Shown here in pieces: positions 651 to 48,000 of a stretch of 49,178 nucleotides of DNA (the stretch's first letter is position 1; every line of letters starts with the position of its first letter). This DNA comes from Elusimicrobia bacterium GWA2_56_46 (GTDB taxonomy: Bacteria > Elusimicrobiota > Elusimicrobia > Elusimicrobiales > UBA9959), in the NCBI GenBank assembly GCA_001799575.1, contig MGTT01000018.1:77404-126581 (forward strand). The letters are read 5' to 3'. The notes beneath the pieces were generated by a model that was not told where the DNA came from, searched no databases, and worked only from the letters and a program-made list of their open reading frames with translations. A program made the position numbers and the translations under genes.

Positions 651-1523
651 CTAAAATCTCAGACCGGCGCCGACGGAATAGAAACCGTCCTTGGTGGAGC
701 CGTCGTCATAAAGCTCGTAGCTGACATTGACAGCCAACATGCTTATATCTATCGTGGCTCCGGCCATATAAGCTTTGGAGGTCTTCTGGCTCAGCTTGAA
801 AGTGGTCCGGGTGTACGACAGAAATGGCGAAACCATAGGCAGGGACGACCAGGCCAGGCCGAAGTTCCAGCTTGACACGGGGAAACCCTGTATGACGTTA
901 TTAAGACCGGTGATGTTTTCAACTTTCGGAACCGAGATTATACTGGCGGCCGAGAGAGTCTTGTCGTAGGAAGACCTGGTGTAAGTTCCGCTGACCCGGG
1001 CGGAAAGGATCTTGGCGCCGGCAAACAGCGACAGATCGGTCTGGTTGATGGTCTCGGTCTTTGCCGCCGTGAACCGATCCTTATGCGCGGTCAGTTTCAC
1101 TGCCGCGCCCACGTCAACCCTTGTAACCCCTTTGCCGCCGCGGCCCGAGGAGCCCGACCGGGGACCGGCCAGCCTGGATCTGCCGCCGCCGTCGGGGGTA
1201 AGAGTGAAAGTGATGTCCCCCCCGAAAAAACTGTTCTGGTAGCCGTTCAGTTTGGAGGTGCTGCCGAACTCCGCGCCAACTCCGTAGATGTCGCGGTCGT
1301 AACCGCCGCGCAGGGAATAGGTCTTGAAAGTGCCTCCCGTGCCGTCGGCCTTGTAAGAATTGAACATGGGCTTGAGGTAGAAAGGCTCCGAACCCACGAC
1401 AAGATACAGTTTGGAACCTCTGTAGCCGTGGGCGCCGGAAACCACACCGGCGCCGCCGTCGAAATAAGCCGCCGCGTTAAGTGAAAGACCCGCCAGCATG
1501 GACGCGATAATTATTTTTTTCAT
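651..1523 (-). CDS. Predicted outer-membrane beta-barrel protein
   Basis: 290 residues. It has a typical signal peptide ([19 protein letters not shown], cleavage likely near residue 19). The remainder alternates short amphipathic strands with Gly/Asn/Asp turns and ends in an aromatic residue (GAGLRF), the usual last-strand signal of outer-membrane barrels. A Gly/Arg/Ser-rich loop lies near residues 112-132. A purine-rich GGGGG Shine-Dalgarno precedes the ATG by about 7 bases. It sits 4 bases upstream of dnaX in the same direction, an odd partnership that may only reflect shared transcription. I do not recognise a specific family; pore, adhesin or structural roles are all possible. Confidence 0.7.
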
Positions 1524-1633: not shown

Positions 1634-2683
1634 TTACCCCACTTTCGCCAGTTCCTTGTTCAGGAAATCGGAATAGCATTTCGCCTTGCGGTTCTTCCAC
1701 GCGCCCTTGTGATAGCCGTAGCCGGCGATAAGCGGCATGGCCAGCGTGGCTTCGGAGAAGACCATCTGCTCGTAGGTGGTCTCCACCTTGCCCCAGGAGC
1801 TGGCTTCTTTCAGCGTGGAGCTGGAGAGCGCGCCGTCGCGCACGTCCGCCACGGTCACCTGGACGGCGTACTTGTGCATGGGGCATTCCTTGCCGAGGAT
1901 GTCGGCCGCCACCACGGTGTCCTGGGTGAAATTCTTGGGCACGCCGCCGCCTATCATGAAGATGCCGGTGTCCCCCGCCTCTATCTTCACCTTGGTCAGT
2001 TCCAGGAAATCCTTAACCGAGTCCATGGACATATGTTTCGCGGGATTCTTCCACTGGTGCTCCACCATGCCGAAGCCGGCGGAACAGTCGGAGAAAGCGG
2101 GCACAAAAATGGGGACGCGCTTCTCATAGGCCGCCAGCACCACGGAATCCTTGTTCTTGCCATGCTTCGAGAGGTATCTTCCCATCTCCTCGATGAACTC
2201 GCGGGAGGAGTAGGGGCGCGGGTCCAGGGAATCGGCGATCTTCTTCGTGGTTTCGTCGCAGATGCGGAGTTCGTCCTCGTCTATAAAGGTGTCGTAGATC
2301 CTGTCGATATGCAGCTCGCGGAGGACATTGTCGTCTATGCCGTAAGGCGTGCCCTTGTAATGCTTGAAGCCGAGGCCCTCGAAGAAATCCTGATCCACGA
2401 TAATGGCGCCCGTGGAGACGATGGCGTCCACCATGTTATTGCGCACCATGTCCACCACCACTTTTTTAAGGCCGGCCGAGAAAAGCGACCCCGCCAGAGT
2501 AAGAATGACCGAACAGCTTTTGTCCGAGAGCATCATGTTATAGATCTGCGCCGCGCGGGCAAGATCCCTGGCGGAAAAAGCCATGTCGTCCATAGCGTCC
2601 ACCATGGGGATCACATTGTGCCGGGTGATCTCAAAATGTTTCACCGTGTCTTTAAGGTAATCTGATTTTTTGAATTTGGGCAT
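1634..2683 (-). CDS. Deoxyhypusine synthase-like / homospermidine synthase-like protein
   Basis: 349 residues, full length for the DHS family. The C-terminal block LKEASSWGKVETTYEQMVF carries the lysine (about K299) that in deoxyhypusine synthase forms the imine with the aminobutyl group from spermidine; upstream NAD-site motifs (STGAIIVDQD, MIGGGVPKN) are also present. In eukaryotes and archaea the enzyme modifies eIF5A, which bacteria lack. Bacterial relatives are thought to transfer aminobutyl groups to polyamines, making homospermidine or similar products, so a polyamine role is more likely here (inference). The start is set by a strong CCGGAGGAATC Shine-Dalgarno. A candidate -10 (2769-2774) and a word array (2708-2759) lie upstream. 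Family assignment is firm; the substrate is open. Confidence 0.9.
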   Translation of the reverse strand: MPKFKKSDYLKDTVKHFEITRHNVIPMVDAMDDMAFSARDLARAAQIYNMMLSDKSCSVILTLAGSLFSAGLKKVVVDMVRNNMVDAIVSTGAIIVDQDFFEGLGFKHYKGTPYGIDDNVLRELHIDRIYDTFIDEDELRICDETTKKIADSLDPRPYSSREFIEEMGRYLSKHGKNKDSVVLAAYEKRVPIFVPAFSDCSAGFGMVEHQWKNPAKHMSMDSVKDFLELTKVKIEAGDTGIFMIGGGVPKNFTQDTVVAADILGKECPMHKYAVQVTVADVRDGALSSSTLKEASSWGKVETTYEQMVFSEATLAMPLIAGYGYHKGAWKNRKAKCYSDFLNKELAKVG

Positions 2684-2799: not shown

Positions 2800-2831
2800 A
2801 AAAAAACCCCGGGATCTCCCGGGGTTTTTTT
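2800..2831 (-). terminator. Rho-independent terminator (symmetric) after the five-gene envelope operon
   Basis: CCCCGGGA/TCCCGGGG stem with a very tight loop, flanked by seven A and seven T, 17 bases past the stop of the 1262-residue gene. The symmetric flanks would let it act on both strands, but only minus-strand genes flank it. Confidence 0.9.
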
Positions 2832-2847
2832 GGAAACATTCACCGGC

Positions 2848-5800
2848 TTATTTGCAGGGTTTGCCTACAAGGGAGCTATAATTCAGCATTTCGCCGTGGT
2901 TATACTGCGACCAGGTACGGTCGTAACTTATATCAGCGGTGAGTTTGGCCCCCAGATCCCAGCCGCCCGAGACCCTGCCGCCAAGCCTGCTGGAAATTGA
3001 AGCGGTGCCCTTTCTCATACCGGCATATTTTATTACCCAGCCGCTGGCGCCTTTGACGCACCCTATTTTCACCTCCATCTCGTACTCCTGGCGCTTCACA
3101 GACGGATCCTGATAATATGCCACGCCGTCGGAGGTGTAGATCGCGTGCGTGCCTTCCACCGGATCCCATTTGGTATGGGCGGCGAGCGGAATATTCTCGC
3201 CTTTGGGATTACCATAAGCGAGATAATAGTCGTTGACCTGAACCGTCACCTGTCCCCTTTCTTTTCCTGTGCAGACCGGATCGCCTGTAAAGGTGCTCTT
3301 GAGCCCCCAACCCCACTTGACACATTTTTCCCCGTACACCTTATTCCCCTGCTGGTCGTAGGCCGGGATCGTGGTTCTGCCTTTCACAAGCTGGACTCCG
3401 TCTATGGTAACCTCAGCTCTCATGCCCGGCTGCAGTTTCGGTTTAGACTCGATCTTGGACTTGGTTGGATCCGCCGGGGCAGGCGCCTGCGCGGGACGCG
3501 GGACACGGGGCGCGGTACGCGACGCGGCGGCGGCCGCTGAAGTTTTGGCGAGCCTAGCGGCCTCTTTCATATTGGCATCAAAGAGACGCGGATAAGACTG
3601 CGGGTTCTGGGCGTCCATATTCCTGCCTATCTGACTGAGCCGCGCTTCTATCTGGTCCAGCCGCGCCTGGGAAACAGGCTTATTTTTCAACTCCTGCCGC
3701 AGGGCCGACATCTCGTCTGCGTTCTGGATCATTATGATCTGGTTGCCCTTGGCCGCGGCCAGGGAGTCCTTGCACGCCCTGCTGACGCATTTGCCGCTGT
3801 TGGCGACCGCCTCGTATCTGCCGCCCGCGGACCCCAGTTGCGCGATCATATCCAGATGCGCGGCATACGCCGACTTGGAAAGGCCGTCCGCCCTGACGGA
3901 AGCGGCCGCAGGCTGAACGGAGGCCGCTCCCGCGCCAGCCGCCCCTGCGAGATTGCCGGCAACCGGTTTAGCCGATGCCGGGGGCTGGGCAGAGCCGGGT
4001 TTGGCTTGTTCTTCGGAAGACGACGGGGACACACCCGGGTCGTCCAGATTTATCTTATACGCGGCCAGCCTGGTTTTTACTTCCGTCATCTTCTCTTTGA
4101 CGGACGCCAGTCCATACATAGCCGAGGAGAGATTCCCTGAATTAGCATCCACGTCCTTCGGCATCTCCTCTTCACCTCTGATGGCGGCGGCGACGAGGCT
4201 TCCACCGGCAAGGTTATTCGTATCCTGTACTTCCGCTATATTCCCGAATTTTTTAAGCGGGGAAACCGCGGCCCACGCCGCCCGTTCGTCGGCCACGGTT
4301 TTGGAATCGTTAGCCTTGCCGGCCTTGTCATAGGGATCGGCCTTCGGCAAACCGCGCCAGAGAAAGGCGGAATCCAGCAATGAATTACCGCCGGCAAGGG
4401 CTTCCGCGGGATCGACTTTTTCTCCGACGGCATCCCTGTACTCTCCGTCGAATTGCGAGTACATGGCCAGCAATACCGGGTCAGCGGGCTTAGCGCGCGC
4501 CGTCTCTCCGGGAACCAGAGCGGGATCTATTCCGGAAATGGTTTTAAAATGCTTCACGATCAGCTCCCGCTGTTCGGGAGTCGGCGTGCCGCCGGCGTCC
4601 TTGACAGGCTGAAGCTCTGCTGTGATATCCTGGGCGGACTTGAGAACCCCGGCATACTCTTTCGCTATGGCCTCGGCGGAGGAGGCGATATAACCCGTCT
4701 GCTTTACATAAACCTCCGCCGCCTTTTTGTGTTCGGCGATATCTTTCTCAACGGCGGAAAGACGGGCCTCGGCCTCCTTTAACTCGGGGGCGGCCTGATC
4801 CAGGTAAGGCAGCACTTCCAGTTTTGTTTCCGCCGACATGGAAACGCCGTTGGACATGACAGCGCCGGACGCGAGCCTGCCCGCCTTAGCGGCTTTCGAC
4901 ACGTTCTCAAATTTGGTTTTAAAGACCCCGTATTCGGACTTAACCGCGGCCGCGGCCGTTTCGGCCTCCTGGACTTTCCGTTCGTAGTCGGCTATTTTGG
5001 TCTGCCTGGTCTTAAGAACTCCGTTCTTTAAAGTTTGGACGACATGATCAACCCTCAGGTTGGAGAAACCGCCGACGGCGAGCATGGTATGCTCAAGCAG
5101 TTTCGCTGGAGCCTTGGCCTTGGCGCCTTCCTCTACGTCGATGAGTATCTGTTTCAGGATGTCGTCATAATTGCCTACGGTAAGGCCGGCGGCCCCCGCC
5201 GCAGACTTGGGCGCCGCCGCCGCACCGCCGCCACCCCCTCCACCGGCTGACGTGTCCGGCTTGAGTGAATCGGTACCAGCGCCGGCAACAGTAGTGGTGG
5301 ACTTGGGATACGGATTATCATGCTGAGTTCCGCAAGGGCAGTCCAGCACTTGACTGTGCGCGGAATCTTTACCTCCGGATTTAAACACCTTTTCCGTCGC
5401 GGTTTCCGCTTCGCACAACTTGAGTACTGAACCCGGAACATCGCCATACCTCCTCAGGGCGATATTATAACAGTCCTTTGTCGTATTACAAATAGACGTA
5501 ACCCAGCATTTACCCGCTGGAGGGCCGTTCATGCCGAGAGCGCTCTTGGTCATATCACCCACGAACTCGGTCAACACACCGCCGACGCCGGTCAGCGCGG
5601 CTTCCAGTATCTTCTTGGGGATCTCGTACTGCTTGTAGAATTCCCATTCCAGCGCTTTCTGCATACGCTGTTTGGCGGCCATCTGTGCCAGCGTTTCGCC
5701 GCTGTTGTTTTTGGTGTCGCGGACGCTGGAATTGGAGGGCGCCTTGTTCTTTTCGTCCACGCCGCCCGCGCCAAGGCCGCCCGCGCCTTTGCCGGCGGCT

Positions 5801-6636
5801 ATGGACTCCGCCGCCGCCTTATCCAGCGAACTGATGGCGCTCCCGCCGCTGAAGCTGCCGGCGGCTTTGTCCGCCTGGCCGCGCAGTTTTTCAAAAGCGC
5901 CCTTGCTGGCGCTGTTGGGGCTTGAGGACACGCCTTTGTAGCCGGCCGGGGCCACCGGCCCCACCATGGAGCGCGAAGCCGCCTTGCCGGACGCGTTTTT
6001 GGCGTCTTCAAGTATTTTGCCGCCACTCAGGGAAGCGGTGGTCCTGGTGCCTTCGCCGCCGCCGAAGAAAGAACTCATCCCCCTGAGCGCCGCCTGCATC
6101 TTGGGAATGACGGTGGGAACCCCCGCCGATTTTGACGCCGCGGAGAAAGCGTTTTGCGCCGAGTCTTTCATGGAATCCCTGAAGCTCGTGCTGGGCGCGC
6201 TATTCATCATGGGCGCAGCCGGAGGCTGGGCAGGCTGCGCGCCTACGATAAGGGAAGCCGGATCCCTTGAACTCAGAGGCGTGATGACTTCCCCGGAACC
6301 GTCGGAAGAACCCTGGCTCAAAGCGTTTATGCCCGGCTCATAGAGCGGAGCGCCGCCGTCCGCGCGCGAACCGAAACCCGGCGTAAGCTGGTCGGCGCCG
6401 GAGGGCTTGGACATCATATACTCGGCCACGGGGGCCATGACCAGAACGCTCATACCCACCGCGACAAAGGCCATATCTTTTTTGGAAAGATTTTTAAGCC
6501 GTTCCATTATGCTTCCGGCGGCTTTGGAAAAAGCGGGCGGGCGGCCAAAAACGGAAGTTTTCTTGAAAGAGCCCCCGGGCTTGCCGAAGACAGGCGGCGC
6601 CCCGTCGTTTTTCTCATCTTCGTTGTTGAAACTCAT
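2848..6636 (-). CDS. Large Ala/Gly/Lys-rich membrane-anchored protein, last gene of the envelope operon
   Basis: 1262 residues, no family recognised. The N-terminus (1-52) is charged and cytoplasmic-looking; one membrane segment follows (about 54-73). Residues 75-360 are low-complexity. A short Cys-rich segment has C377, C383, C389, C408, C433 and C435, probably disulfides in the periplasm. Then comes a Gly/Ala linker and a long predicted coiled coil (about 545-660), more Ala-rich sequence, and a compact aromatic/Gly-rich C-terminal domain (about 1085-1262) with several Cys that may be a beta-sandwich. The start is fixed by GGGAGGATTTT before ATG. It shares the layout 'charged N-tail, one TM, long linker' with the next four genes upstream, from which a 182-base gap separates it. 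A possible internal promoter (6688-6716) lies in that gap, and a strong terminator follows. A structural, envelope-spanning role is inference. Confidence 0.8.
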   Translation of the reverse strand: MSFNNEDEKNDGAPPVFGKPGGSFKKTSVFGRPPAFSKAAGSIMERLKNLSKKDMAFVAVGMSVLVMAPVAEYMMSKPSGADQLTPGFGSRADGGAPLYEPGINALSQGSSDGSGEVITPLSSRDPASLIVGAQPAQPPAAPMMNSAPSTSFRDSMKDSAQNAFSAASKSAGVPTVIPKMQAALRGMSSFFGGGEGTRTTASLSGGKILEDAKNASGKAASRSMVGPVAPAGYKGVSSSPNSASKGAFEKLRGQADKAAGSFSGGSAISSLDKAAAESIAAGKGAGGLGAGGVDEKNKAPSNSSVRDTKNNSGETLAQMAAKQRMQKALEWEFYKQYEIPKKILEAALTGVGGVLTEFVGDMTKSALGMNGPPAGKCWVTSICNTTKDCYNIALRRYGDVPGSVLKLCEAETATEKVFKSGGKDSAHSQVLDCPCGTQHDNPYPKSTTTVAGAGTDSLKPDTSAGGGGGGGAAAAPKSAAGAAGLTVGNYDDILKQILIDVEEGAKAKAPAKLLEHTMLAVGGFSNLRVDHVVQTLKNGVLKTRQTKIADYERKVQEAETAAAAVKSEYGVFKTKFENVSKAAKAGRLASGAVMSNGVSMSAETKLEVLPYLDQAAPELKEAEARLSAVEKDIAEHKKAAEVYVKQTGYIASSAEAIAKEYAGVLKSAQDITAELQPVKDAGGTPTPEQRELIVKHFKTISGIDPALVPGETARAKPADPVLLAMYSQFDGEYRDAVGEKVDPAEALAGGNSLLDSAFLWRGLPKADPYDKAGKANDSKTVADERAAWAAVSPLKKFGNIAEVQDTNNLAGGSLVAAAIRGEEEMPKDVDANSGNLSSAMYGLASVKEKMTEVKTRLAAYKINLDDPGVSPSSSEEQAKPGSAQPPASAKPVAGNLAGAAGAGAASVQPAAASVRADGLSKSAYAAHLDMIAQLGSAGGRYEAVANSGKCVSRACKDSLAAAKGNQIIMIQNADEMSALRQELKNKPVSQARLDQIEARLSQIGRNMDAQNPQSYPRLFDANMKEAARLAKTSAAAAASRTAPRVPRPAQAPAPADPTKSKIESKPKLQPGMRAEVTIDGVQLVKGRTTIPAYDQQGNKVYGEKCVKWGWGLKSTFTGDPVCTGKERGQVTVQVNDYYLAYGNPKGENIPLAAHTKWDPVEGTHAIYTSDGVAYYQDPSVKRQEYEMEVKIGCVKGASGWVIKYAGMRKGTASISSRLGGRVSGGWDLGAKLTADISYDRTWSQYNHGEMLNYSSLVGKPCK

Positions 6637-6687
6637 AAAATCCTCCCGACAAGCTCGATTGAAGATTCCGGAATCTATAGAATCTCC

Positions 6688-6716
6688 CTTATACTTTACC
6701 TAATATCGCCGGACAA
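6688..6716 (-). promoter_or_regulatory. Candidate internal sigma70-type promoter before the 1262-residue gene
   Basis: On the minus strand TTGTCC, a 17-base spacer, then TATAAG. It is about 50 bases before the start codon, in the only wide gap of the five-gene cluster. It could give the last gene extra expression. Confidence 0.5.
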
Positions 6717-6818
6717 GCCAAGTGCCGATGGGCCCTGCCGCCCCTGGGCCTTTGTACCCTGGATCAGCTTGTGGAAGGCAAAGCAATTCAGGAAAATATC
6801 GGTTTGGAGGCGGACTGC

Positions 6819-8390
6819 TTACTCATCCTTTTTGAATCCGGATCTGGCATCCTTGTTCGCCGTTGTTACCGACCTGTACAGCGCTTCGGCCTGGGCCAGG
6901 GCGGCGGCCATGGCGGCGGCGATCCTGCTCATGATGTAGTTGTACATCAGGTATCCGACGATGGCGGCCGCCACGAACGCTATCAGCGGGCCGAGGATCA
7001 TCGCGACGACGGCAAAAACGGCGAGAACGATCATCAGCAGCATCATGAAGATATTGAACCTGCCGCTTGGCCTGCGGCATCTGCTTATGACCATGCCGCC
7101 GCTTCTGGTGTCCCTGAAATAGATGCCGCAGTCCATCGGGGTATTCGAGGTCTGGCACGCGTTCGCGAGTTCGGTCTGATTGGCGTTAAAATCCCGGCAC
7201 AGCTCCCCCTGCCGGGCGACGCCCGCGTTCCACGGGCCGATATCCCCGTAGCACGGCGGCGGCGAACTTCTCTGCGAGATCCGATCCATCTCGGCCGCGT
7301 CTTCCGACATTCTCGCGCCCTGCACGGACTGGGCGTTAGCACAGTTCTCGGCCTGCCGCTGGAGGCCGGTGACGTCGTTAAGACTGTCGGTAAAACCGCC
7401 CTCGGGAACGACCGGCGGATTGTCGTCGGTCTGTATGACGTCGAGGTTCACGTCGTTGCCGTCATAAGTGGAACCGGTATACGCGGCCTGGTACTCGTAA
7501 GCTGAATCCTGCGATCTTGAGGCCGAGCCGGTGGCGGAGTAGGTCTCCGCCAGTTGGAACAGGGGCCGCCTGCTGCCGACCTGTTTATCAACGGCCGCGC
7601 TCCTGGTTCTGTAGCCCACGTTCTTCCAGGAAAACCCGGAAACTCTGCCCATTCTCCTGGCGTTTACCCTCCGCGGCCCCCCGGGTATGGGCACCCTGGC
7701 GCCGGACTGATTCATGGCGGTGGAATATATACCCTCTTGCCGGCTGCCGGCGCCGGGCCCGGAAAGGGCGCTTCTATCCGCGTAAGGAGCGCTCCCTCCG
7801 GAGGAATAGCGATCCGCCAGGTTCTGTCCCATGGTATCGCCGTAAAGGCCGCTTTCAGGACTGACAGGGATCCCGGCCAGATCCACCGCTCCGCCGTCCT
7901 CTCCGCGTGCCCGTTCCTCGGCGTTGACCACACCCATCACCTGGCCGGAGCCGGCGCGTTTCCCGCCCGCCTTGCGGGAGACGGGCATACTTAGCTCGGC
8001 CCCGCCCGTTACCATGGCAATAGAAGAAACGTTAGAGCAGCCCTCTCCCCGGCACGGCAGCGCGGAGCTGACGGCGCTCATCAGCCTGTTCCAGTAGGAA
8101 GTCCGCGCGCTTTCCAGCGCCGCCCGGTCTATGGCGGCTTTCACGAATTCGCCGGAATACTTAGGATTAAAAGAAGCGGCAAGACCGCCCAGGCCCGCCA
8201 TCCTCAGCGCCGCGGCCACCGGCGGCATTTCGAACAGCCTGCTGAGAGTTTCGCCGGATATTACAAAAGGCAGGGACGCGGCCGCCACAAGCAGCGCGAT
8301 AGTGACGTACCTGGCCCGGCCCCTGACGATCAGCAGCAACAGGGTAAGCAGGGATTTACGTCTATGCTTGTCTACGAACTCGCTTCCCAT
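6819..8390 (-). CDS. Membrane protein with Cys-rich extracytoplasmic region (envelope operon gene 4)
   Basis: 523 residues, no family recognised. A basic N-tail is followed by one TM segment (about 29-46). The long central part is Ser/Gly/Arg/Tyr-rich, with cysteines clustered at about 345-440 (ENCANAQ, PPPCYGD, GELCRDF, NACQTS, DCGIYF, SRCRRP). Two closely spaced TM segments follow (about 445-486), then a short charged cytoplasmic tail. The topology puts the Cys-rich stretch outside the inner membrane. The start is supported by GGAG five bases before ATG. It lies 12 bases after the 479-residue gene. Its central motif order loosely resembles the two paralogues upstream, but I cannot show homology by eye. 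Confidence 0.78.
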   Translation of the reverse strand: MGSEFVDKHRRKSLLTLLLLIVRGRARYVTIALLVAAASLPFVISGETLSRLFEMPPVAAALRMAGLGGLAASFNPKYSGEFVKAAIDRAALESARTSYWNRLMSAVSSALPCRGEGCSNVSSIAMVTGGAELSMPVSRKAGGKRAGSGQVMGVVNAEERARGEDGGAVDLAGIPVSPESGLYGDTMGQNLADRYSSGGSAPYADRSALSGPGAGSRQEGIYSTAMNQSGARVPIPGGPRRVNARRMGRVSGFSWKNVGYRTRSAAVDKQVGSRRPLFQLAETYSATGSASRSQDSAYEYQAAYTGSTYDGNDVNLDVIQTDDNPPVVPEGGFTDSLNDVTGLQRQAENCANAQSVQGARMSEDAAEMDRISQRSSPPPCYGDIGPWNAGVARQGELCRDFNANQTELANACQTSNTPMDCGIYFRDTRSGGMVISRCRRPSGRFNIFMMLLMIVLAVFAVVAMILGPLIAFVAAAIVGYLMYNYIMSRIAAAMAAALAQAEALYRSVTTANKDARSGFKKDE

Positions 8391-8402
8391 ACGTTCTCCA
8401 GC

Positions 8403-9842
8403 TTATTTCCCGCCGGCCATGCTGCCCAGCAGGCCGAGTATGCCGGCTATTCCCGCCATCCACATAGGAGTTATAGGGCCGACGCTCTTGCCGGCCATCG
8501 CCATACCGGCCGCGGCCATGGCTACGCCGCCGCCGATAGTGTAAATAGTGCCCAGCATACCCTGGCCGAACGAACTCATCAATTTGATACCGATCATAAG
8601 AGCCATCGCGCCAAGCGCCAGCGCGGCCGCGCACAACGCCATACCTATCGCATAGAGTATCATACCGATGTAAGGTACGCTTCTCATACCGATAAGGATG
8701 CCGCCTATCATGGAAAGAACGGCCGACAGCATTATGTACATCATTGCCTGCTGCGGCAGTCCCTGCCAGGGGCTGACATCGACAGGAGCGCCCACATCGG
8801 GTATAACCGGATCATCAACCGTCCCGCCGCCACCGCCGGTGGAGGTGTTATCCAGAGAGGGAGACGTGACAATGCCGGAACCGCCTTCCCCGGGCGAGAC
8901 GCCCGCGCCGGCGGAGGAAGCCGACCCGTCGCCGGTGGAGCCTTCCCACGCCCTATCCTGCGTGGAACGGTTGGAGTCCACGTCCCTTCCGGTGTTGCTT
9001 CTCTGCGTGGCCCTTACGCCCTTGGCCTGGCCGTACGATCCCCTGCCTATGGGACTGCTGCCCAGGCCCCTGCTCCTTGAGAACACCGGCCGGGAGGAAC
9101 CTTTCATGGCCAGGAGTTTTTTCCTCTGGTCGAACCTGGGGCTGCTCTGGAAACCGCCTCCCAGGCTGCTGAGCCCGGCCTTGGGGCCGACCGCGCCGGA
9201 ATTGAACTTATTCCAGAAGCCGCCCATACCGCTGAATTTGCCGTCGCCGCCGCCCATGGAACTGGAAAGCCCGCCGCCGAAATTGCCCGCGGCAAGCTTG
9301 CCCGTCAGTTCCTGGGCCATACTGTTCTGCTCGGGCGCGGAGGCGGTGGCCTCCGGGGCCTGCCCGTCAGCCGCGTCCTGGTCTTTGGAACCGGCCTTGC
9401 CCTCGTTTTCCTTATTCAGATTTTCATCCATGCCCGCCGCGCCCTTGTTGGTTTCCCTCAACAAGTCCAACGAAGAGGCCTGGTTCCTGGTGTCGCGCAG
9501 AATAGCGGGCACATAATTGTCCGCCGGGGCCTTGTCGGAACTGAAAGCCCCGGTACTCACTCCGGGCGCCGGCTGGTTGTTCATATAAACGCCGGTACCG
9601 AGAGCCGCGGCGACTACGGCGGCGGTCAGCACAAGCCCCGCCTTTCCGGCCAGCAGGCCGCCTATGCCGGAAGAAGCGCCGAACTTCCCGGCGCCCAGGG
9701 ACGCCCGCCCGAGATTGGCCGCGCCCGGCAATTCGCCGCCTATGGCGCTGCGTCCGCCGAAGCCCAGGCGGGACCGGAACCAGGGAAGAAACCCTTTCTT
9801 CTCTTTTTTCTCCTTGAAATTTATCTCAGGTAGATCACTCAT
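8403..9842 (-). CDS. Multi-TM low-complexity protein, paralogue A (envelope operon gene 3)
   Basis: 479 residues. Lys/Glu-rich cytoplasmic N-tail (FKEKKEKKGFLPWF), then a Gly-rich stretch and TM1 (about 66-87). A long Ser/Gly/Asn linker contains SSLDLLRETNKG and GRGSYGQAKG. Four hydrophobic segments close the protein after the motif VSPWQGLPQQAMMYIML. The neighbouring 488-residue protein has the same blocks in the same order (STLDLLREQAKK, GSFGQAKFAG, VSPWKKYTDMAMYAML, GMKLMGEFGQ against GIKLMSSFGQ), so the two are tandem paralogues. The start is supported by GGGGAGG. Function unknown. Confidence 0.8.
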   Translation of the reverse strand: MSDLPEINFKEKKEKKGFLPWFRSRLGFGGRSAIGGELPGAANLGRASLGAGKFGASSGIGGLLAGKAGLVLTAAVVAAALGTGVYMNNQPAPGVSTGAFSSDKAPADNYVPAILRDTRNQASSLDLLRETNKGAAGMDENLNKENEGKAGSKDQDAADGQAPEATASAPEQNSMAQELTGKLAAGNFGGGLSSSMGGGDGKFSGMGGFWNKFNSGAVGPKAGLSSLGGGFQSSPRFDQRKKLLAMKGSSRPVFSRSRGLGSSPIGRGSYGQAKGVRATQRSNTGRDVDSNRSTQDRAWEGSTGDGSASSAGAGVSPGEGGSGIVTSPSLDNTSTGGGGGTVDDPVIPDVGAPVDVSPWQGLPQQAMMYIMLSAVLSMIGGILIGMRSVPYIGMILYAIGMALCAAALALGAMALMIGIKLMSSFGQGMLGTIYTIGGGVAMAAAGMAMAGKSVGPITPMWMAGIAGILGLLGSMAGGK

Positions 9843-9886
9843 ATAGCCTCCCCGAATTCATTTTTAAAATCGCCGCCGGTTTCAAC

Positions 9887-11353
9887 TTATTCCTTGCCGA
9901 TCTTGGCCCCCTCGCCTATGCACATCTCACTGTCCGGGTTTTTTTTGATCGTATTCTGCGTCGGCGCCGAGGGAGCGGCGGCGTCCAACGCTCCATTCCC
10001 GGTGTCTTTGTTGATATCCGCCGCGCTGCCCGCCTCCGCCCCGGCGAAAGCCGAGTAGGCTTTCCATATAAGCAGGCCGCCGGCGGCCAGATATATGACG
10101 CCGGTCCACTTCTGACCGAATTCGCCCATCAGCTTCATGCCGGCAAAGAGAACCAGCGCTGCCGCGGCGATAGCCAGGCCGGCCACGATTTTGGCGGCCA
10201 TGAACAAAGCGGCATTCGCCGGCGCCGGAGTCGCTTTCGCCTTATTGGACAGCATATTGGCGATGAAAATAAGCACGGCGGCGGCCAGCATGGCGTACAT
10301 GGCCATATCAGTGTACTTCTTCCAGGGAGACACGTTCTCAGGATTGGGCACCTTGGGAGGAGCGGACTCGTTCAGGTTCATGCTGGGATCGCTGGTTTTA
10401 AGTTTAGCCCCGTTTGCGATGCCGGAACCACCCAGTCCCGCGCCGCCTTCCGGAACGCCGACATCACCGCCACCGGAGGTCTCGCCGGAAAACGCTTCCA
10501 CCGCGCTGGTTCTGGCGCCGGAGGCGGACGCCGAATAAGCCGCCTGCCTGCCGACGTTGCCGGCGAACTTGGCCTGCCCGAACGAGCCCTTTCTGTTAAA
10601 GCCGGGAACGGAGTTCTTAGGCGAATGCCTTACCGCTGAGGCCAGGGAACCTTTCATGGCCGAGGACTTACCGGCGCTCTGGCCGGCCGGCGGCCTGTAA
10701 ACGGGCGAAAACTTGCCGTTGATGCCGGAGAACATCCCGCCGCCGCCGGAAAGTTTGGGCGTAACCGAAGCTGAGGCTGAGCCCTTGGATCCGCCGAAAC
10801 CGGCGGAAGCCTGCAGCTTAGCGCCGCCGCCCGCCGGTGCCCCTGACGCGGCATCCGCCGACGCCCCCCCGCCATAGTTATCATCGCCGGGGACTTCTCC
10901 CGCGGCGGCGTCCGCAGCCTTACCATCCGCGGCCGCGGCGGAATCCGCTCCACCGGCGGCAAGGCCGTCTTTTTTGGCCTGCTCCCTGAGAAGATCAAGC
11001 GTGGAGGCCGAGGCTGCCGACGCGCCGGTTTTAGCGCTGGAGCGCTCCAGGCCGGCGTTACCGGCCTGCTCCTCGTAGTAGGTGTCCTGGAAAAGCTGGG
11101 GGCTGTAAACGGGTTTGGAGGACGGGCCTATGAAATTATAGACTACGCCGACTCCGGCGGCTATCGTGGCTCCCCCCAGTACCATGCCCAGCATACCGGC
11201 CTTAGTGGCGAAAAGCCCTCCGAAGCCGCCCAGGCCCGCCCCGGTCGAGCCTAAACCGGAAGCGCCGCCCGCCGCGGACGTCCCTCCGCCGAAAAGGCTT
11301 GAAAGGAACGCCAGGATACCGCCTTTCTTTTCCTCTTTTTTAAATCCGTTCAT
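9887..11353 (-). CDS. Multi-TM low-complexity protein, paralogue B (envelope operon gene 2)
   Basis: 488 residues from the ATG at 11351-11353, chosen because GGAGG lies 8 bases upstream; a longer frame from 11419 would overlap the previous gene by 47 bases and has no such site. Charged N-tail, Gly-rich segment, TM1 (about 53-75), a long Ala/Gly/Ser linker, then three or four TM segments after VSPWKKYTDMAMYAML, and an Ala/Asp-rich tail ending in GEGAKIGKE. Paralogous to the 479-residue protein downstream. No known domain seen. The gap to the upstream 311-residue gene is 19 bases. Confidence 0.8.
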   Translation of the reverse strand: MNGFKKEEKKGGILAFLSSLFGGGTSAAGGASGLGSTGAGLGGFGGLFATKAGMLGMVLGGATIAAGVGVVYNFIGPSSKPVYSPQLFQDTYYEEQAGNAGLERSSAKTGASAASASTLDLLREQAKKDGLAAGGADSAAAADGKAADAAAGEVPGDDNYGGGASADAASGAPAGGGAKLQASAGFGGSKGSASASVTPKLSGGGGMFSGINGKFSPVYRPPAGQSAGKSSAMKGSLASAVRHSPKNSVPGFNRKGSFGQAKFAGNVGRQAAYSASASGARTSAVEAFSGETSGGGDVGVPEGGAGLGGSGIANGAKLKTSDPSMNLNESAPPKVPNPENVSPWKKYTDMAMYAMLAAAVLIFIANMLSNKAKATPAPANAALFMAAKIVAGLAIAAAALVLFAGMKLMGEFGQKWTGVIYLAAGGLLIWKAYSAFAGAEAGSAADINKDTGNGALDAAAPSAPTQNTIKKNPDSEMCIGEGAKIGKE

Positions 11354-11372
11354 ATGTGTATCCTCCACCCGT

Positions 11373-12308
11373 TTATTTGGCCGCCGGAAGACCGAACACG
11401 GAACCGAACATGGGGCCAAGCACGTTGCTTATGAGCATCTGTATTATCATCTTCTTCATCTCTTCGTCGCCCTTATCTTCCTTTACCGGCTTGGGCTCCG
11501 GCAGGTTCACTTTCTTTTTACTTAACTGAGGATCGTTGCGCTTCAGATCCTGCGCCGCCGCGCCCAAAGCCAGACCGGATACGGCCGCCCCTTTTTCCAG
11601 CCCCGAATTCAGCTCCTGGGAGCCGGCCTTGGCCGTCTTTTCAAAAGCCGCCGAGGAGCCGCCTCTCGACGCATCCGCGTTGAAAGATCCGGCCGCCTGC
11701 GCGCTCTTCTCTTCGGCTTTCTCCAGCATGGCCAGCATGGCGCCGCGCTTATCCGCGGCCGCCGGCTTTTTGGACGTCTGATCCGAAAGCGGGGCCAGCT
11801 CCGGCCTGGAAGCGGCCGCGCCGCTCCCGAAGAACTTATTATGCGCGCCGCCGGTGGTCATGGAGTTGGAATTGCCCGCGGTGATGGAAGGCACGGAACT
11901 CAGTTTGCCTTTCGGACCCTGTAGACCGGGGGCTTCGGCCGAAGCGTAGGCGCCGGAAAGAGGCGCGGAATTACCGGAAGCCGCGGCCGGGGCTTCCGGC
12001 GCCGTTTCCTCGTCCGGCTCCGCCCGGAAAAGAGATGAAGCGATCTCCTCGCCGGAAGTAGCGGGGTTATTGAGCATCTCTCCGCTGAGAGCGTACCCGG
12101 GCGCGCCGTTTTCCGAAGGCAGGTCGTTATGCAGGGAACTGACATTCGCGGTTCTCGTTTTAAAAAAATTGCCCGGATCCACCGAGGAATCCAGGGACGA
12201 GTTATGCATCAGCGGGATCGAGATCCAGGCAAAAAGCACGATCACGGCCACAGCGCCGCCTACGAGATACTGCGTGGACTTCGTTCTTCTCCCCATTATG
12301 TTCGTCAT
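11373..12308 (-). CDS. Single-TM Ala/Ser-rich protein (first gene of the envelope operon)
   Basis: 311 residues. A short basic N-tail (MGRRTKSTQ) precedes one TM segment (about 13-34). The outside part is low-complexity, with possible short helices (AMLAMLEKAEEKSAQAAGSF). Its C-terminus is a basic/acidic stretch followed by an amphipathic hydrophobic end (KKMIIQMLISNVLGPMFGSVFGLPAAK) that could insert in or pack on a membrane. It is the promoter-proximal gene. A second ATG four codons in is an alternative start. Function unknown; it shares the general layout of the rest of the operon. Confidence 0.75.
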   Translation of the reverse strand: MTNIMGRRTKSTQYLVGGAVAVIVLFAWISIPLMHNSSLDSSVDPGNFFKTRTANVSSLHNDLPSENGAPGYALSGEMLNNPATSGEEIASSLFRAEPDEETAPEAPAAASGNSAPLSGAYASAEAPGLQGPKGKLSSVPSITAGNSNSMTTGGAHNKFFGSGAAASRPELAPLSDQTSKKPAAADKRGAMLAMLEKAEEKSAQAAGSFNADASRGGSSAAFEKTAKAGSQELNSGLEKGAAVSGLALGAAAQDLKRNDPQLSKKKVNLPEPKPVKEDKGDEEMKKMIIQMLISNVLGPMFGSVFGLPAAK

Positions 12309-12400: not shown

Positions 12401-12429
12401 GTTATAGCAGATAACCCTTGACTTGTCAA
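12401..12429 (-). promoter_or_regulatory. Strong sigma70-type promoter of the five-gene envelope operon
   Basis: Minus strand: perfect -35 TTGACA (12424-12429), 17-base spacer, -10 TATAAC (12401-12406), about 90 bases before the first start codon. The -35 overlaps the stop codon of the upstream flavodiiron gene (12426-12428). This is the best promoter I see in the window. Confidence 0.85.
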
Positions 12430-42082: not shown

Positions 42083-45000
42083 TTACCTCACCACGGCGAA
42101 TTTGCCCGTCTTCTTTAACTTCTGCCCCGCTTTTTCGGCTTTGACAGCGTAATAGTAGACGCCGCTCGGGATATGCCCGTCCCAGGTATATTCATAGGCG
42201 TAAGCCAGGCCGTTTCCGTCGTCCAGGACGGCCGGCGCGGCGGTCAGTGCGCGCTCATGCGCCAGCCTGCCGGAAACCGTGTATACAGTTATGTCCACAC
42301 TGTCGGCTATACCGACCTCAATATGAAACACCGGCTTCGCCCCGCCCTTGGCCGGGTTCGGGAACACATACACCTCGCCCAGCCTGAACGCCGGATCCGC
42401 CGCCGGCACGCTCCCCGCCACCCGCATCCCGCTGCCCGCCTCCCGCGGATCGTCCACGGCTGAAACGACCGCCTGGTACTGCGAGAAATGCCGCACGGCC
42501 GCTTTAACCACTTGTCCGGCCGAGTCCACGCTGGATTCAAGCGGCTCCCATTCCTTTTGGGACGGGTTCCAGTAAGCCACGCCTATTTTCTCAACGGACT
42601 GGTCATACGGCTCGTACGGCAGGCTTATGACCACTGATCCGCGGAAAATCGCGCCCTCGGGGCCGAAGTCATACGCCGCGCCGCGCCTTTTGAGGCCTTT
42701 CGCGGACAGGGCCCGCTCCTTAATACTCTCTTCCTCTTCGGACGAACCGGCGTCCTCTATGGTGACGGCGAGGTCGCCGGCCAGCGCGCCGCCGGAGATC
42801 TCAGCGGAAGCGCCCTTGTCATGCCGCACCGCGCCGCCTTTCCGCGACGCTATCGTCTTCTTGACCACCACGCCCCATTCACCGCGCTCACGCGCCAGTT
42901 CCTCGTCAAACGGCGTGAATCCGGGCGTAAAAGAGGATGGGCTTATACTGTATCTGACTATCCGGTTATGGAAAGTGTCCGCGACCCACAGGTCTTTCCC
43001 CGGGGAAAAGTCCAGGGCGGACGGCGCGAAGATCCGCTTCCACCCGCGCGCCTCCGTAGTCCCGCCGAAGTTCAGAAGCGTTTGTCCGTCCGGCGCGAAT
43101 TTAAAGATGCCGCCGCCGCCCAGATCCGCCGCGTAAACCGCGCCTTGTGAATCGGTTCCGATGCCGCCGGGCCGCTTCAGGCCCGCATCACCGGCTGAGA
43201 TCGTCCGCAGCAACACGCCCTCGCCGCTGAATTCGATCAGCATTCCGCGGTTTATATCGCTCACCCATAAATTGCCGCCGGCGGCCAGCGCCAGCCCGTA
43301 CGGCCTGCCGGAGTTATTATAGAACCGCTTATACTCCGCCCAGCCGCACTCACGCGCCTCGTCCTCGCCGGGCTCCGCGCCGTCCCAATCCCTGGAGGCT
43401 TCCATGACCCCCGTGGCGAATGATCTGATAAAATCGCCCTCAGGGCCGAATATCTGCACCCGGCCGTTGTTCTTGTCGGCCGCGTAGATCAACCCCGCGC
43501 TAGACACAGCCACGTCGGTGGGCTGGATGAATTCCCCGCGCCGCCGGCCGGGGCCGGACTGATCCCGGCGCCCTGTCTTTTTTCCGATCTCAAGAACTAT
43601 CCGGCCGTCGCCCGACAATTTCAGCACTCTGTGGTTATCCGTGTCCGCGACATAAAGATAGCCTGTTGCGTCCACGGCCAGGCCGTGCGGCTTTGAGAAG
43701 TCGGCGTCGTCGTCGGCTTCCCATTTCCCGCGCCCGCTGCCCGCTTTCCAGTGACGCCGCCACTTCTTCCGGCCGCCCAGCTCAGCCAGCACGTCCCCCT
43801 CTTCGCTCAACTGGAGCAGACGGTTATTGCCGGTGTCCGAAACCCAGATCGTCCCGTCGGACGCGACGGCTATGCCGCGCGGGTGGTTAAGATCCACTTT
43901 CAGTTTCTCCCACCGGCCTATGGCCTGCGTCAGGTACGGCTTACCTATAAACACGCCGGATCTGACCAGCGCCGCGTTGCCCACCCTGTCCACGGCTTTC
44001 AGCCGCAGCGTATACCCGCTGGAAAGGCCGGCGGTGTTCCAGGGCGACAGAACTCCGGAGGCGGCCGCCGCGCCCGACGCTATGAAGACATAGCCGGAAG
44101 CGGCGCTCTCACCGGCCGCGTATTCAAGCGTCCAGGATGAAAGGACAAGATCGGAAACGCTCCCCTGCACGGCGAGAACGCCTTCCACCGCCTTTTCAAG
44201 CCCCACCGCGCCCGAGGCCGGGAAGTCAAGCGCCAGCAGCGGAACCGTCGCGTCCGCCGTAAACATCGCAGTACGCGCCGGTTCGCGGTTACCGGCTTTA
44301 TCAACACTGTAATACGCCACGCTCTGCGCCCCTTCCGAGGAAACGTACACCGGCCCCGAAACAGCCGCGAACGGCGCGCCGTTTAACGAAACATAGGCAG
44401 CCGCCGCGCCCGTGCCCGCGCCATCGCCGCTTATCAGCAGATCGTCGGACGCGCTGAACGACAACGGGGTATTGAAATTGATGAAAGTCATTCCTCCGGC
44501 GGAGTAACTCGGCGCGCCCACGGCAAGCAGTGTTACCGGCGGCACGGTGTCGTGTATTACCTCGAACGCGCCGGACACCGCGTAAACCGGATTGTCGGCG
44601 AAATCCGTGGCCGAAACCGTAAGTTCCCAGATACCGTCGTCCAGTCCTGCCGGATCCACATTCTGACCGACGGCAACGGCAACAACGTCCGGCATGCTCC
44701 CGCCGGGCACGCCTCTGTCTTCGATACGCGCCAGATACGCCGCTGTCCCGCGTACGCCCGATAAGCCGTCCGTCACGCTGAAATTTATACCCACGCCGTC
44801 TATTCCCGCCGTATATCTGCCGCCCGCCGACGGGCTGGAGATCGAGATAAGAGGCGCGTGTTTGTCTATATTGATATCCGGCACGGTCACTACGGACACA
44901 TTGCCGGCCAGATCCACGGCTTCGCCGCGCGCGGAAAGCCCGGCTTCCTCCACGGTCAATGCCAGGCCGCCGGGACAGCGCTCCACGCCGGACAGATTAT

Positions 45001-48000
45001 CGGAGCAGTTGAAATTTACCGCCACATCGGTATTGTTCCAGCCCGCCGCGTTCGGCGGCGTCCTTGAATACGCCAGCCGCGGCGCGGTGGTGTCTATACT
45101 GACAATTAAGGAAGCGCCGGCCGATAGACCCGCGTAGTCCATACAATGTCCGACGATGATCCGGCTTGAAACCTCCACGCCGATCGTTTCGGCCGGGGTG
45201 CAATAGGCTATGCCCGATACGGTGTCGGTTCCGGAGAATATCACCGAGACTGGAGTGTTGTTCCAGCCATAAGCGTTGCGCTCAGGCGTCCGCGAAACAG
45301 ATACTACCGGATTTGTAAAATCCATTTTCAACGCGGAGCTGGAGCAGGCCGTATTACCCAGACCGTCCGAAGCGTCGTACTTCAGGGTATGGACGCCCTC
45401 GGAAGGCCCGGCAAAGGGCGATGAGTAAACCGTAAAAGTATCGGTATCCAGCGCGTAATGAACGGCTTGTACGCCCGACAGCGCGTCGGTGGAAACAAGC
45501 GCCACCGCGCCGGGGGACACATACCAGCCATTGGCGCCCGCGGTACCGGCCGGCGCCATAGATATTTCAGGAGGGGTGTTATCCAAGGCGATCGTGCTTC
45601 TGCCAACCGCCGCGATATTGCCCAATACATCCCCGGCATTGTAATCCATGTAGTAAAATCCGTCCGCCGCGCCCCAGGCGGAAAAAGAGAAAGTGGAGAC
45701 AAACGCCTCTCCCTGCTTCGGCTCCGGATTCTCAAAAGTCAGCTCTTTAACTATCGCACCGCCGGCTTTCAAACTTATAACCTGTCTTCTTACGCCCAGG
45801 CCTATCCCGTCGCCGGACAGCGCCAGATCGTCCAGGCTTGCGAGCTTCAGCTCCGTCTCTTTCCTTATATACGTGCTCCCGCCGCCCTCGTACCGCGGCC
45901 CGCTCACCGTCAGTTCCGTCACCGGCGCCAGAACATCGTGCACCACCTCGAACGTCCCGCCGGACAGCGCGCTTGAATTATCAGCGAAATCCGTCGCCGA
46001 AACCATAAGTTTCCAGACACCATCGTCTATGTCCAGCGGCTCTATGACTTGCCCGTCTGCCACGGCCACGCGCGCCGGCCGGCCGCCGCGAGGACTGCCC
46101 CTATCACCGGTCTGCTCAAGCCAGGCGGTAAACCCCGGCGCCGGGTCAAAATTATCTCTCACCGCGAATCCGACCCCGATCCCGCCGCGCGTCGCCACAA
46201 AAACGCTTCCCGCAGCGGGCGAAGAAATAGTTATAACCGGCGCGGAGCCGTCCGCATTCACCGGCGACGATTTGACCGCTTCCAGATTACCAGCTCCGTC
46301 CGTGCTTCGGAATTCAATGATATGCGTGCCCTCCGTGAGTGCGAACGGGCCGGAATAAAGCCGAAAAGGCGTGGAACTGCCGGCGTCAATACGATATTCC
46401 GTGAACGCAACCCCGCTGGATGTGGCGTAAACGACAGGATCCTGCGCTCTTAAAATGATACTTGATGCCGCGTTTACATACAGTCCGCCGTCAGGCGAAT
46501 GATGGGATAGGCTGGAGAATTCCAATGCTGTGGACGGCGGGACATTATCAGTGCTCTCGCCGAAAATGCCGAAGACAGAGGCCAGCAGCGTTATCTCGAC
46601 CCGGATCTCTTTTCTGTAGAAATCGCGGATTTGGCCGGGCACCTTCGCCAGCGTGCCGTCCGCCTCATAATGATATAGATAAATATCGCTTTCTGCGATA
46701 TTGAACTGCGCCAGCGTAGAAGTGGAATACCGGAAAGTCAGCATGAGCGGCGGAGAAAAAGACACATTTTCAGGGCCCACCTGATATATCCCGCTGACCG
46801 GGTAAATCCCTTCCGCCTCCGCTGCGCCCAGAATGACGGCGCCCGCGCCGGACGACGTCTCCACGGCGGCCAGTTCAATCGGCAGGCTCGCGTTGGCAAA
46901 AACTTCCGGCTGTTCGGAAATCATGGAAGCGCTGGCCGCATAATACGCCCCTACCGTGCCATATGCGCCGGCCTGGGCAAACCCTCCCCCTATGCCCCCG
47001 CGCACGGTAATGGATCCGCCGAAATTTCCGTACAAACCGACACGCCCGCCGGATCCCCCGCCGCCGCCGCGCTGATTTCCCGCGCCGCCCGCGCCGCCGT
47101 CTACGTCTACCAGACCCGCACCGTTCAGAATACCGGCCCTTATATTTATGCCGCCGCCGGATCCCCCGCCAGCGCCGTAATCCCCGTTTGTCGAACCAGC
47201 CCCGCCTTTGGAGATCAAGCCGCCATTAACTGTGAGCATCCTGCCCACGACAAGATTTATCGTGCCGCCGCCCGCGCCGCCGATAACACCATTTCCGCCC
47301 CCGCCGCCCGAACCCGCATCCTCGGGCCAGCTTATGGAACCGTAACTTATCCCCCCCAAAGCGCCGCCGTGGCCTTTCCCGCCGGAACCGCCGTAGCCTG
47401 CTCCCCCGCCGCCGGCCGACAAAGAACCGGCCCCGCCGCCAGCACCGGATCCGCCTATTCCGGACAAACCGCCCGTGTAACCCAGACCGCTCACATCCAC
47501 GCTGCCGCCGGCCTCCACTACCATGTCATTTATTACCCTTATGTTAACCGCATATGACTTTTGCGCGCCGTTGGCCCGATGCGTAACCTTGCTGCCACTT
47601 TTCACTAAAAGATTGCCTATCGTCCACTGCGATAGTCCCGTTTGTTCCAGCACGGAACCGCGCCCGCTGCCGCTTTCAAGCACCACGCTGCCGAGCGCCG
47701 TCAGGCTCGATATCCGCAGCGTCGCGCCAGAAAGCGTAAGCGTGGATACAGACGGGAATGTCATCGTTGCGATACTGATATCATTTAACCCGGGCAGTAG
47801 CACGCTCCCGCCGGGGAAATTGCTTTCACCAGTTAAGTTCTCAAGACGGTTCACACCGCTGAATTCCGCAGTGCCCATAATGTTGATGCGCTCCACTCCG
47901 CTAAACCGCGTTTCGGAGTTCCCGAACATAACCGCGTCCACCGTAATAGTTGACGCGCCCAACATAGCCGACGTAATAACGGTCACACCGGATAAACCCG

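What the first reader, a model, noticed from the sequence alone, without database searches (positions are those of the whole stretch)
2848..12308. Five-gene operon of low-complexity, membrane-anchored proteins: candidate undescribed envelope machine
Five genes in one direction from a near-perfect promoter encode proteins of 311, 488, 479, 523 and 1262 residues. Each has a charged N-tail, a membrane segment, then a long Ala/Gly/Ser-rich linker; three end in clustered TM helices and two have Cys-rich outer segments. None matches a family I know. Shared layout, tight spacing, one terminator and tandem paralogues argue that the products form one complex spanning the inner membrane and periplasm.
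Basis: partly seen in the sequence, partly recalled or inferred. Interest (0 to 1): 0.75.

Follow-up and report, generated by a model that had tools for sequence, protein, structure and literature searches.

The report
Unnamed add-on to Tad pilus machinery
Five neighbouring genes in an uncultured Elusimicrobiota bacterium encode membrane-anchored proteins with long flexible tails that match no catalogued family, and in related bacteria the same genes sit inside the gene set for a Tad (type IVc) pilus, so they are most likely an undescribed add-on to that surface-fibre machine.

Summary
Five minus-strand genes (311, 488, 479, 523 and 1262 aa) run from a TTGACA-17-TATAAC promoter to a strong terminator, and none matches Pfam, NCBIfam, PADLOC or PDB beyond generic coiled coil. 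The low-complexity linkers are under selection: column identity is 0.38-0.54 against 0.07-0.09 for shuffled sequence. Genes 1, 2 and 3 share homologous linkers. A sixth relative, 'g0', lies upstream in sister species.

The interpretation changes. The order g1-(g2/g3)n-g4-g5 recurs across several families of the class, including reduced-genome gut members. In many of these (43 genomes with g5 15-38 kb from tadZ-tadA) the array directly follows tadG-tadE in a complete Tad pilus locus (CpaB/RcpC, secretin, TadZ-TadA, TadB, TadC, TadE, TPR, sensor kinase). Of 159 genomes with g5, 154 carry the same TadZ-TadA. In the window's own genome the Tad locus is on another contig and retains a g0 homologue right after tadE.

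Best reading: an undescribed inner-membrane-anchored accessory module of a Tad pilus, probably a periplasmic scaffold around the pilus base. Tad association is well supported; the scaffold role is inferred. This is a new variant of a known kind.

The parts
12401..12429 (-). promoter TTGACA-17 nt-TATAAC with TG before the -10 box, overlapping the 3' end of the upstream ODP/flavodiiron-type gene
   Evidence: sequence read (11 of 12 consensus bases); the scan requires TATAAT-type last T and so did not list it
11373..12308 (-). g1, 311 aa: basic N-tail, TM 15-33, A/G/S-rich linker with conserved motifs (APGxxLSGEM, NPATSGE, HNKFFG, AFxK, LKxNDPxL), amphipathic C-terminus
   Evidence: homologous linker with g2 (E 2e-10; E 2e-9, above all 20 column shuffles)
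9887..11353 (-). g2, 488 aa: K-rich N-tail, TM about 50-75, conserved linker (SSLDxxRE, GQAKFAG, AFSGET, LKxxDPxxN), C-terminal TM cluster
8403..9842 (-). g3, 479 aa: paralogue of g2 with the same layout and a C-terminal TM cluster
   Evidence: g2-g3 hhalign E 2e-38
6819..8390 (-). g4, 523 aa: N-terminal TM, linker (model confidence under 50 for about 75-340), Cys-bearing helical hairpin about 341-440 (mean pLDDT 83-95 over most of it), two C-terminal TM helices
2848..6636 (-). g5, 1262 aa: N-tail, TM 57-75, very conserved linker, Cys pair, variable coiled-coil middle, beta-rich C-terminal domain
5512..6636 (-). g5 N-terminal module (aa 1-375: tail, TM, conserved linker with LSARDPxSLI and PRMxxxLRGxGSFFGGG), the part conserved across families of the class
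2851..3450 (-). g5 C-terminal beta domain (aa 1063-1262), not universal; also the C-terminus of stand-alone proteins of about 540-600 aa elsewhere in relatives, several with a visible signal peptide
   Evidence: no PDB fold match better than E 0.42
2800..2831 (-). intrinsic terminator AAAAAAACCCCGGGAGATCCCGGGGTTTTTTT

Best explanation
g1-g5, with the sixth relative g0, are an undescribed accessory module of the Tad (Flp, type IVc) pilus apparatus of the class Elusimicrobia. Shown: the genes form a co-conserved array; in many relatives it sits directly after tadG-tadE inside a full Tad locus; it occurs in the genomes that carry this TadZ-TadA subtype; a g0 homologue follows tadE in the window's own genome. 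Inferred from sequence: the proteins are N-in, inner-membrane anchored, and expose about 280-300 aa extended segments to the periplasm. Inferred from homology of the linkers in g0-g3 and a weaker shared motif in g5: those conserved short motifs are docking sites for a common partner or for each other. Proposed mechanism: several copies ring the TadB/TadC platform and reach through the periplasm toward the outer-membrane secretin, which here is only 240-260 aa with a short pre-secretin part. They would thereby align or stabilise the growing pilus, while their different C-termini (TM bundle in g2/g3, Cys hairpin plus TM in g4, coiled coil and beta domain in g5) form the periplasmic or membrane collar.
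For: Array order is conserved in the window's family, in f7/f8 and in the gut family f2, where one-to-one matches are fA-g1, fB-g2, fC-g3, fD-g4 and fE-g5. Complete Tad loci sit immediately upstream: TadE PF07811 E 7e-12, RcpC/CpaB PF16976 3e-19, secretin PF00263 7e-42, T2SSE plus MinD-like 2e-62, two T2SSF. Collinear maps of six genomes show tadG-tadE2-g1..g5. In 43 genomes g5 is 15-38 kb (median 21) from tadZA on one contig (from the coordinates). 154 of 159 g5-positive genomes carry TadZA at E <= 1e-100 (against 60). A g0-like protein follows tadE2 in the window genome (hhalign 97.4%, E 1e-11). The f10 genome without a g5 hit shows, by eye, a g1-like protein after tadE2 at a contig end. Linkers are conserved and Cys-poor, charge bias is N-in, and the g4 linker is modelled at very low confidence. 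Short secretins appear.
Against: In the window's family the array is unlinked to the Tad locus (C18 against C11; also G012, G013, G024). No physical interaction was tested. Tad loci of other classes of the phylum lack the array, so a Tad pilus does not need it. g4 has no significant linker homology to the others. The scaffold role rests on layout and inference only, and co-occurrence is confounded by shared ancestry.
Confidence: 0.62

Rival explanations
1. The proteins are cargo or tip/adhesin components displayed or secreted through the Tad pilus rather than a basal scaffold: pilus-associated surface proteins whose variable C-termini contact targets.
For: They follow the tadG and tadE minor-pilin genes, whose relatives form variable tips in Kil/Tad pili (PMC12075869). 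The g5 C-terminus varies strongly between species and one version also occurs in stand-alone proteins, some with signal peptides. In f7/f8 large proteins of 880-1217 aa, some with visible signal peptides, follow g5.
Against: They lack the class III prepilin motif (3 of 87 orthologues against 7 of 7 tadE1 and 9 of 9 tadE2). They keep an N-in signal anchor and, in g2, g3 and g4, several C-terminal TM helices, which do not suit export. The conserved part is the membrane-proximal linker, not the tip.
Confidence: 0.15
2. An independent envelope machine that is only neighbouring the Tad locus in some lineages.
For: Array and Tad locus are on different contigs throughout the window's family, and other classes have Tad without the array.
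Against: Direct adjacency to tadE2 in f2, f7 and g19 genomes, a g0 homologue at the same place in the window genome, 43 linked genomes and near-complete co-occurrence with one TadZ-TadA subtype.
Confidence: 0.13
3. Highly diverged versions of known Tad parts (RcpB, TadD, TadF, extra TadG).
For: Same locus; known Tad systems include small envelope proteins of poor sequence conservation (own knowledge).
Against: No Pfam or NCBIfam match for any of the five. tadE, tadG, a TPR protein, CpaB and the secretin are separately present in the same loci. Size, linker layout and paralogous arrays are unlike those parts.
Confidence: 0.06
4. A surface-sensing or regulatory module that reports pilus state to the linked histidine kinase and response regulators.
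For: A sensor kinase and response regulators lie in the same loci, and the conserved cytoplasmic tails could signal.
Against: Five to six bulky paralogues are more than a sensor needs; no signalling domain was found in them.
Confidence: 0.04

Closest known systems
Tad (Flp, type IVc) pilus system
   Same: In relatives the array is embedded in a locus with TadE, RcpC/CpaB, secretin, TadZ-TadA, TadB, TadC, TPR and TadG-like genes; Tad systems in Elusimicrobia were reported by Denise et al. 2019 (PMC6668835).
   Different: The array's five to six protein families matched nothing in Pfam, NCBIfam, PADLOC or PDB and are not described in the papers found. TadZ and TadA are fused and the secretin is short.
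RcpC/CpaB alignment complex of Tad pili (PMC12307814)
   Same: Works-like comparison: inner-membrane anchored by one TM helix, periplasmic, proposed to bridge platform and secretin.
   Different: RcpC is a folded dodecamer and a separate RcpC/CpaB is encoded in the same loci; g0-g5 are linker-dominated, several paralogues, with extra TM helices.
Tad/Kil tip complexes of minor pilins (PMC12075869)
   Same: Encoded beside tadE/tadG; variable C-terminal domains.
   Different: g0-g5 have no prepilin cleavage motif and several have C-terminal TM bundles.
TonB/TolA/VirB10-type proteins
   Same: N-in tail, one TM, long low-complexity periplasmic segment (recalled resemblance, not tested as homology).
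   Different: No family match and none of the partner genes turned up in the neighbourhoods examined.

Membership tests
Tad/Flp (type IVc) pilus system, for the locus that carries the array in relatives | TadA-type secretion ATPase with TadZ | tested here: met
   fused MinD-like plus T2SSE protein, PF00437 E 2e-62; in window genome at C11:120003-122213
Tad/Flp (type IVc) pilus system, for the locus that carries the array in relatives | two separate platform proteins with one T2SSF domain each (TadB, TadC) | tested here: met
   (E 3e-17 and 4e-15). In the window genome tadB was called; tadC was masked by an opposite-strand ORF in my gene caller, while sister species G002 has both
Tad/Flp (type IVc) pilus system, for the locus that carries the array in relatives | RcpC/CpaB and an outer-membrane secretin | tested here: met
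   PF16976 E 3e-19, PF00263 E 7e-42; homologues in window genome
Tad/Flp (type IVc) pilus system, for the locus that carries the array in relatives | TadE-type pilins with GxxxxE processing site | tested here: met
   PF07811 E 7e-12; motif in 7 of 7 tadE1 and 9 of 9 tadE2
Tad/Flp (type IVc) pilus system, for the locus that carries the array in relatives | major pilin Flp and prepilin peptidase TadV | not tested
   not searched for
Known Tad protein families, for g1-g5 themselves | match to a curated Tad family model | tested here: not met
   no significant Pfam or NCBIfam hit
Type IV pilins or pseudopilins, for g0-g5 themselves | class III signal peptide with G/A before xxxxE and hydrophobic stretch | tested here: not met
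   3 of 87 orthologues, scattered
Alignment-complex function (works-like, not membership) | periplasmic contact with platform and secretin | not testable with these tools
   needs interaction or imaging data
   no interaction data available

The most novel reading that the evidence does not exclude
The paralogous linkers are a new kind of trans-periplasmic scaffold: several different membrane-anchored, largely disordered proteins co-assemble through shared short motifs into a flexible collar that takes over the periplasmic spanning work normally done by secretin N-domains and a folded alignment ring in Tad pili.
Probability: 0.25. Interest if true: 0.85.

Novelty: new variant of a known kind. 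Interest (0 to 1): 0.64.

Why it matters
If right, several families of bacteria, including host-associated lineages with 1.1-1.7 Mb genomes that have lost much else, keep a five- to six-gene set of uncatalogued proteins devoted to one pilus type. It would add new parts to the Tad pilus, whose periplasmic assembly is only now being resolved. It offers a case of strongly conserved, apparently disordered membrane-anchored linkers with a testable role. It also gives a functional context to proteins that otherwise have no family assignment throughout the class.

Tried and rejected
(1) Single-sequence search suggested the gut sister family f2 lacks g5 (0 of 16); the class-wide profile reversed this. 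(2) The adjacent outer-membrane-barrel gene ('bar', 651-1523) was tested as partner and rejected: outside the window's family it lies on other contigs and occurs in genomes without g5. (3) The downstream polyamine-type synthase (1634-2683) and the upstream ODP, ThiF and Mur genes are housekeeping-type neighbours seen beside the array only in the window's family. (4) Fold search of the g5 C-terminal domain gave nothing better than E 0.42 on a medium-confidence model. (5) PDB hits to g5 are generic coiled coil; the weak g4 hit to CagY (E 0.14) is not significant. (6) PADLOC: nothing. (7) Prepilin-type processing of g0-g5: not supported. (8) Literature searches found no description of the module; the E. 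minutum genome paper and the groundwater Elusimicrobia paper are not held.

Full report
**What is there.** The five ORFs are at the stated places, on the minus strand, with the stated lengths. Upstream of g1 is a promoter TTGACA-N17-TATAAC at 12429-12401. Downstream of g5 is a near-perfect GC hairpin with a T run at 2831-2800 (z = -5.0). Gaps of 19, 44 and 12 nt join g1-g4; g5 follows after 182 nt. The polyamine-type synthase, the outer-membrane barrel gene and the ODP gene on either side are ordinary neighbours. The window belongs to a 2.66 Mb genome; close relatives are named Elusimicrobiales or Elusimicrobia bacteria.

**The proteins.** None has a significant match in Pfam, NCBIfam, PADLOC or the PDB sequences, apart from generic coiled coil in g5. 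All have a positive tail, one TM segment and then a linker of about 280-300 residues with 44-55% A/G/S/P/T, no excess of charge and mostly no Cys. Flanking charges give an N-in topology. g2, g3 and g4 end in TM clusters; g4 has six conserved Cys in a helical hairpin that AlphaFold predicts well (mean pLDDT 83-95 over most of 351-440), while its linker is modelled below 50. The low-complexity linkers are not neutral filler: pairwise column identity is 0.38-0.54 in g1-g5, against 0.07-0.09 when residues are shuffled within each row. Short motifs recur: g2 and g3 are paralogues (hhalign E 2e-38), and g1 and g2 share their linker (E 2e-10). In linker-only comparisons against column shuffles, g0-g1, g0-g2, g1-g3 and a short g0-g5 segment also exceed every shuffle; g4 shows no significant match.

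**Conservation.** In the window's family the order g1-g2-g3-g4-g5 is constant, with a sixth member g0 upstream of g1 in most species. The window genome lacks g0 by profile search. A class-wide profile of the g5 N-terminus hits 159 of 295 genomes of the phylum, including nearly all of the gut family f2 with genomes of 1.1-1.8 Mb, and families f7, f8 and f12-f14. A g2/g3 profile hits 102 genomes, 99 of which are g5-positive (one search compared). In f2 the five genes match g1, g2, g3, g4 and g5 in order. In f7/f8 the g2/g3 type is expanded to three or four copies.

**The link to Tad pili.** The genes directly upstream of the array in f2 and f7/f8 are a TadE-like and a TadG-like minor pilin. Reading further upstream gives a complete Tad locus: TadE, RcpC/CpaB, a 244-259 aa secretin, a fused TadZ-TadA, TadB, TadC, a TPR protein, a sensor kinase and regulators. 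Collinear maps of four f2 genomes, of G146 and of G176 (f7) show tad genes - tadG - tadE2 - g1 ... g5, with an FtsH-like protease inserted in f7. On the coordinates printed, 43 genomes have g5 15-38 kb from tadZA on one contig. Of the 159 g5-positive genomes, 154 carry this TadZ-TadA at E <= 1e-100. Families f3, f4 and f9 have neither; f6 lacks g5 and has at most a weak TadZA match. f5 has a more distant TadZA and at most a weak g5-like protein. In f10 a protein that by eye is g1-like follows tadE2 and the protease at a contig end. Other classes have distant Tad loci without recognisable array genes in the three examined.

**In the window's own genome.** The Tad locus lies on contig C11 (tadZA at 120003-122213), away from the array on C18. 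Immediately after tadG-tadE2 there is a 440 aa protein homologous over its length to g0 (hhalign 97.4%, E 1e-11). One member of the family therefore still sits in the Tad locus, and the rest of the array has moved. Large contigs in G013 and G024 show that the separation is real in this family and not an assembly effect.

**How it most likely works.** Shown: genomic embedding, co-occurrence, conservation and paralogy. Inferred: the proteins are anchored in the inner membrane next to the TadB/TadC platform and extend into the periplasm; the shared motifs dock on a common partner or on each other; the module aligns or stabilises the pilus between platform and secretin. The short secretin is consistent with this. 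In Pseudomonas the RcpC ring fills the gap (PMC12307814); an RcpC/CpaB is also present here, so the array would add to it and not replace it. The proteins lack prepilin processing motifs and are unlikely to be pilins or tips.

**Limits.** Gene calls are by a simple longest-ORF procedure, which masked tadC in the window genome with an opposite-strand ORF. Kinship labels are those of the tool. Phyletic co-occurrence shares ancestry and is weaker evidence than the synteny. No interaction or expression data were available. The g5 C-terminal domain model is of medium confidence and matched no fold. I found no paper describing the module, but the two most relevant genome papers are not in the library.

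Noticed in passing
L024:7124-8794, L025:5960-7723, L026:6815-8536, L027:5849-7663, L028:2829-4448: Stand-alone proteins of about 540-600 aa in the window's family, several with a visible signal peptide, carry the g5 C-terminal beta domain and lie next to a Sel1-repeat gene and, in several, a TPR-protein-kinase gene.
   Followed up: partly
L073:13095-16502, L078:1630-5145, L081:13807-16902, L091:4490-8143: In f7/f8 a conserved protein of 880-1217 aa with no Pfam match follows g5 directly; some copies have a visible signal peptide.
   Followed up: partly
L075:17263-18972, L077:1115-2839, L089:17659-19362: An FtsH-like AAA/M41 protease gene is inserted between tadE and g1 in f7/f8/f10 Tad loci.
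   Followed up: no
window 1634-2683 (-): Gene of the deoxyhypusine synthase superfamily, best NCBIfam hit 1,9-bis(guanidino)-5-aza-nonane synthase (E 5e-180), often beside the array in the window's family.
   Followed up: no
window 42083-49129 (-): 2348 aa ORF with NHL repeats (E 6e-31).
   Followed up: no
window 651-1523 (-): 290 aa predicted outer-membrane barrel with no Pfam match, widespread in the class and partly beyond it, independent of the array.
   Followed up: yes
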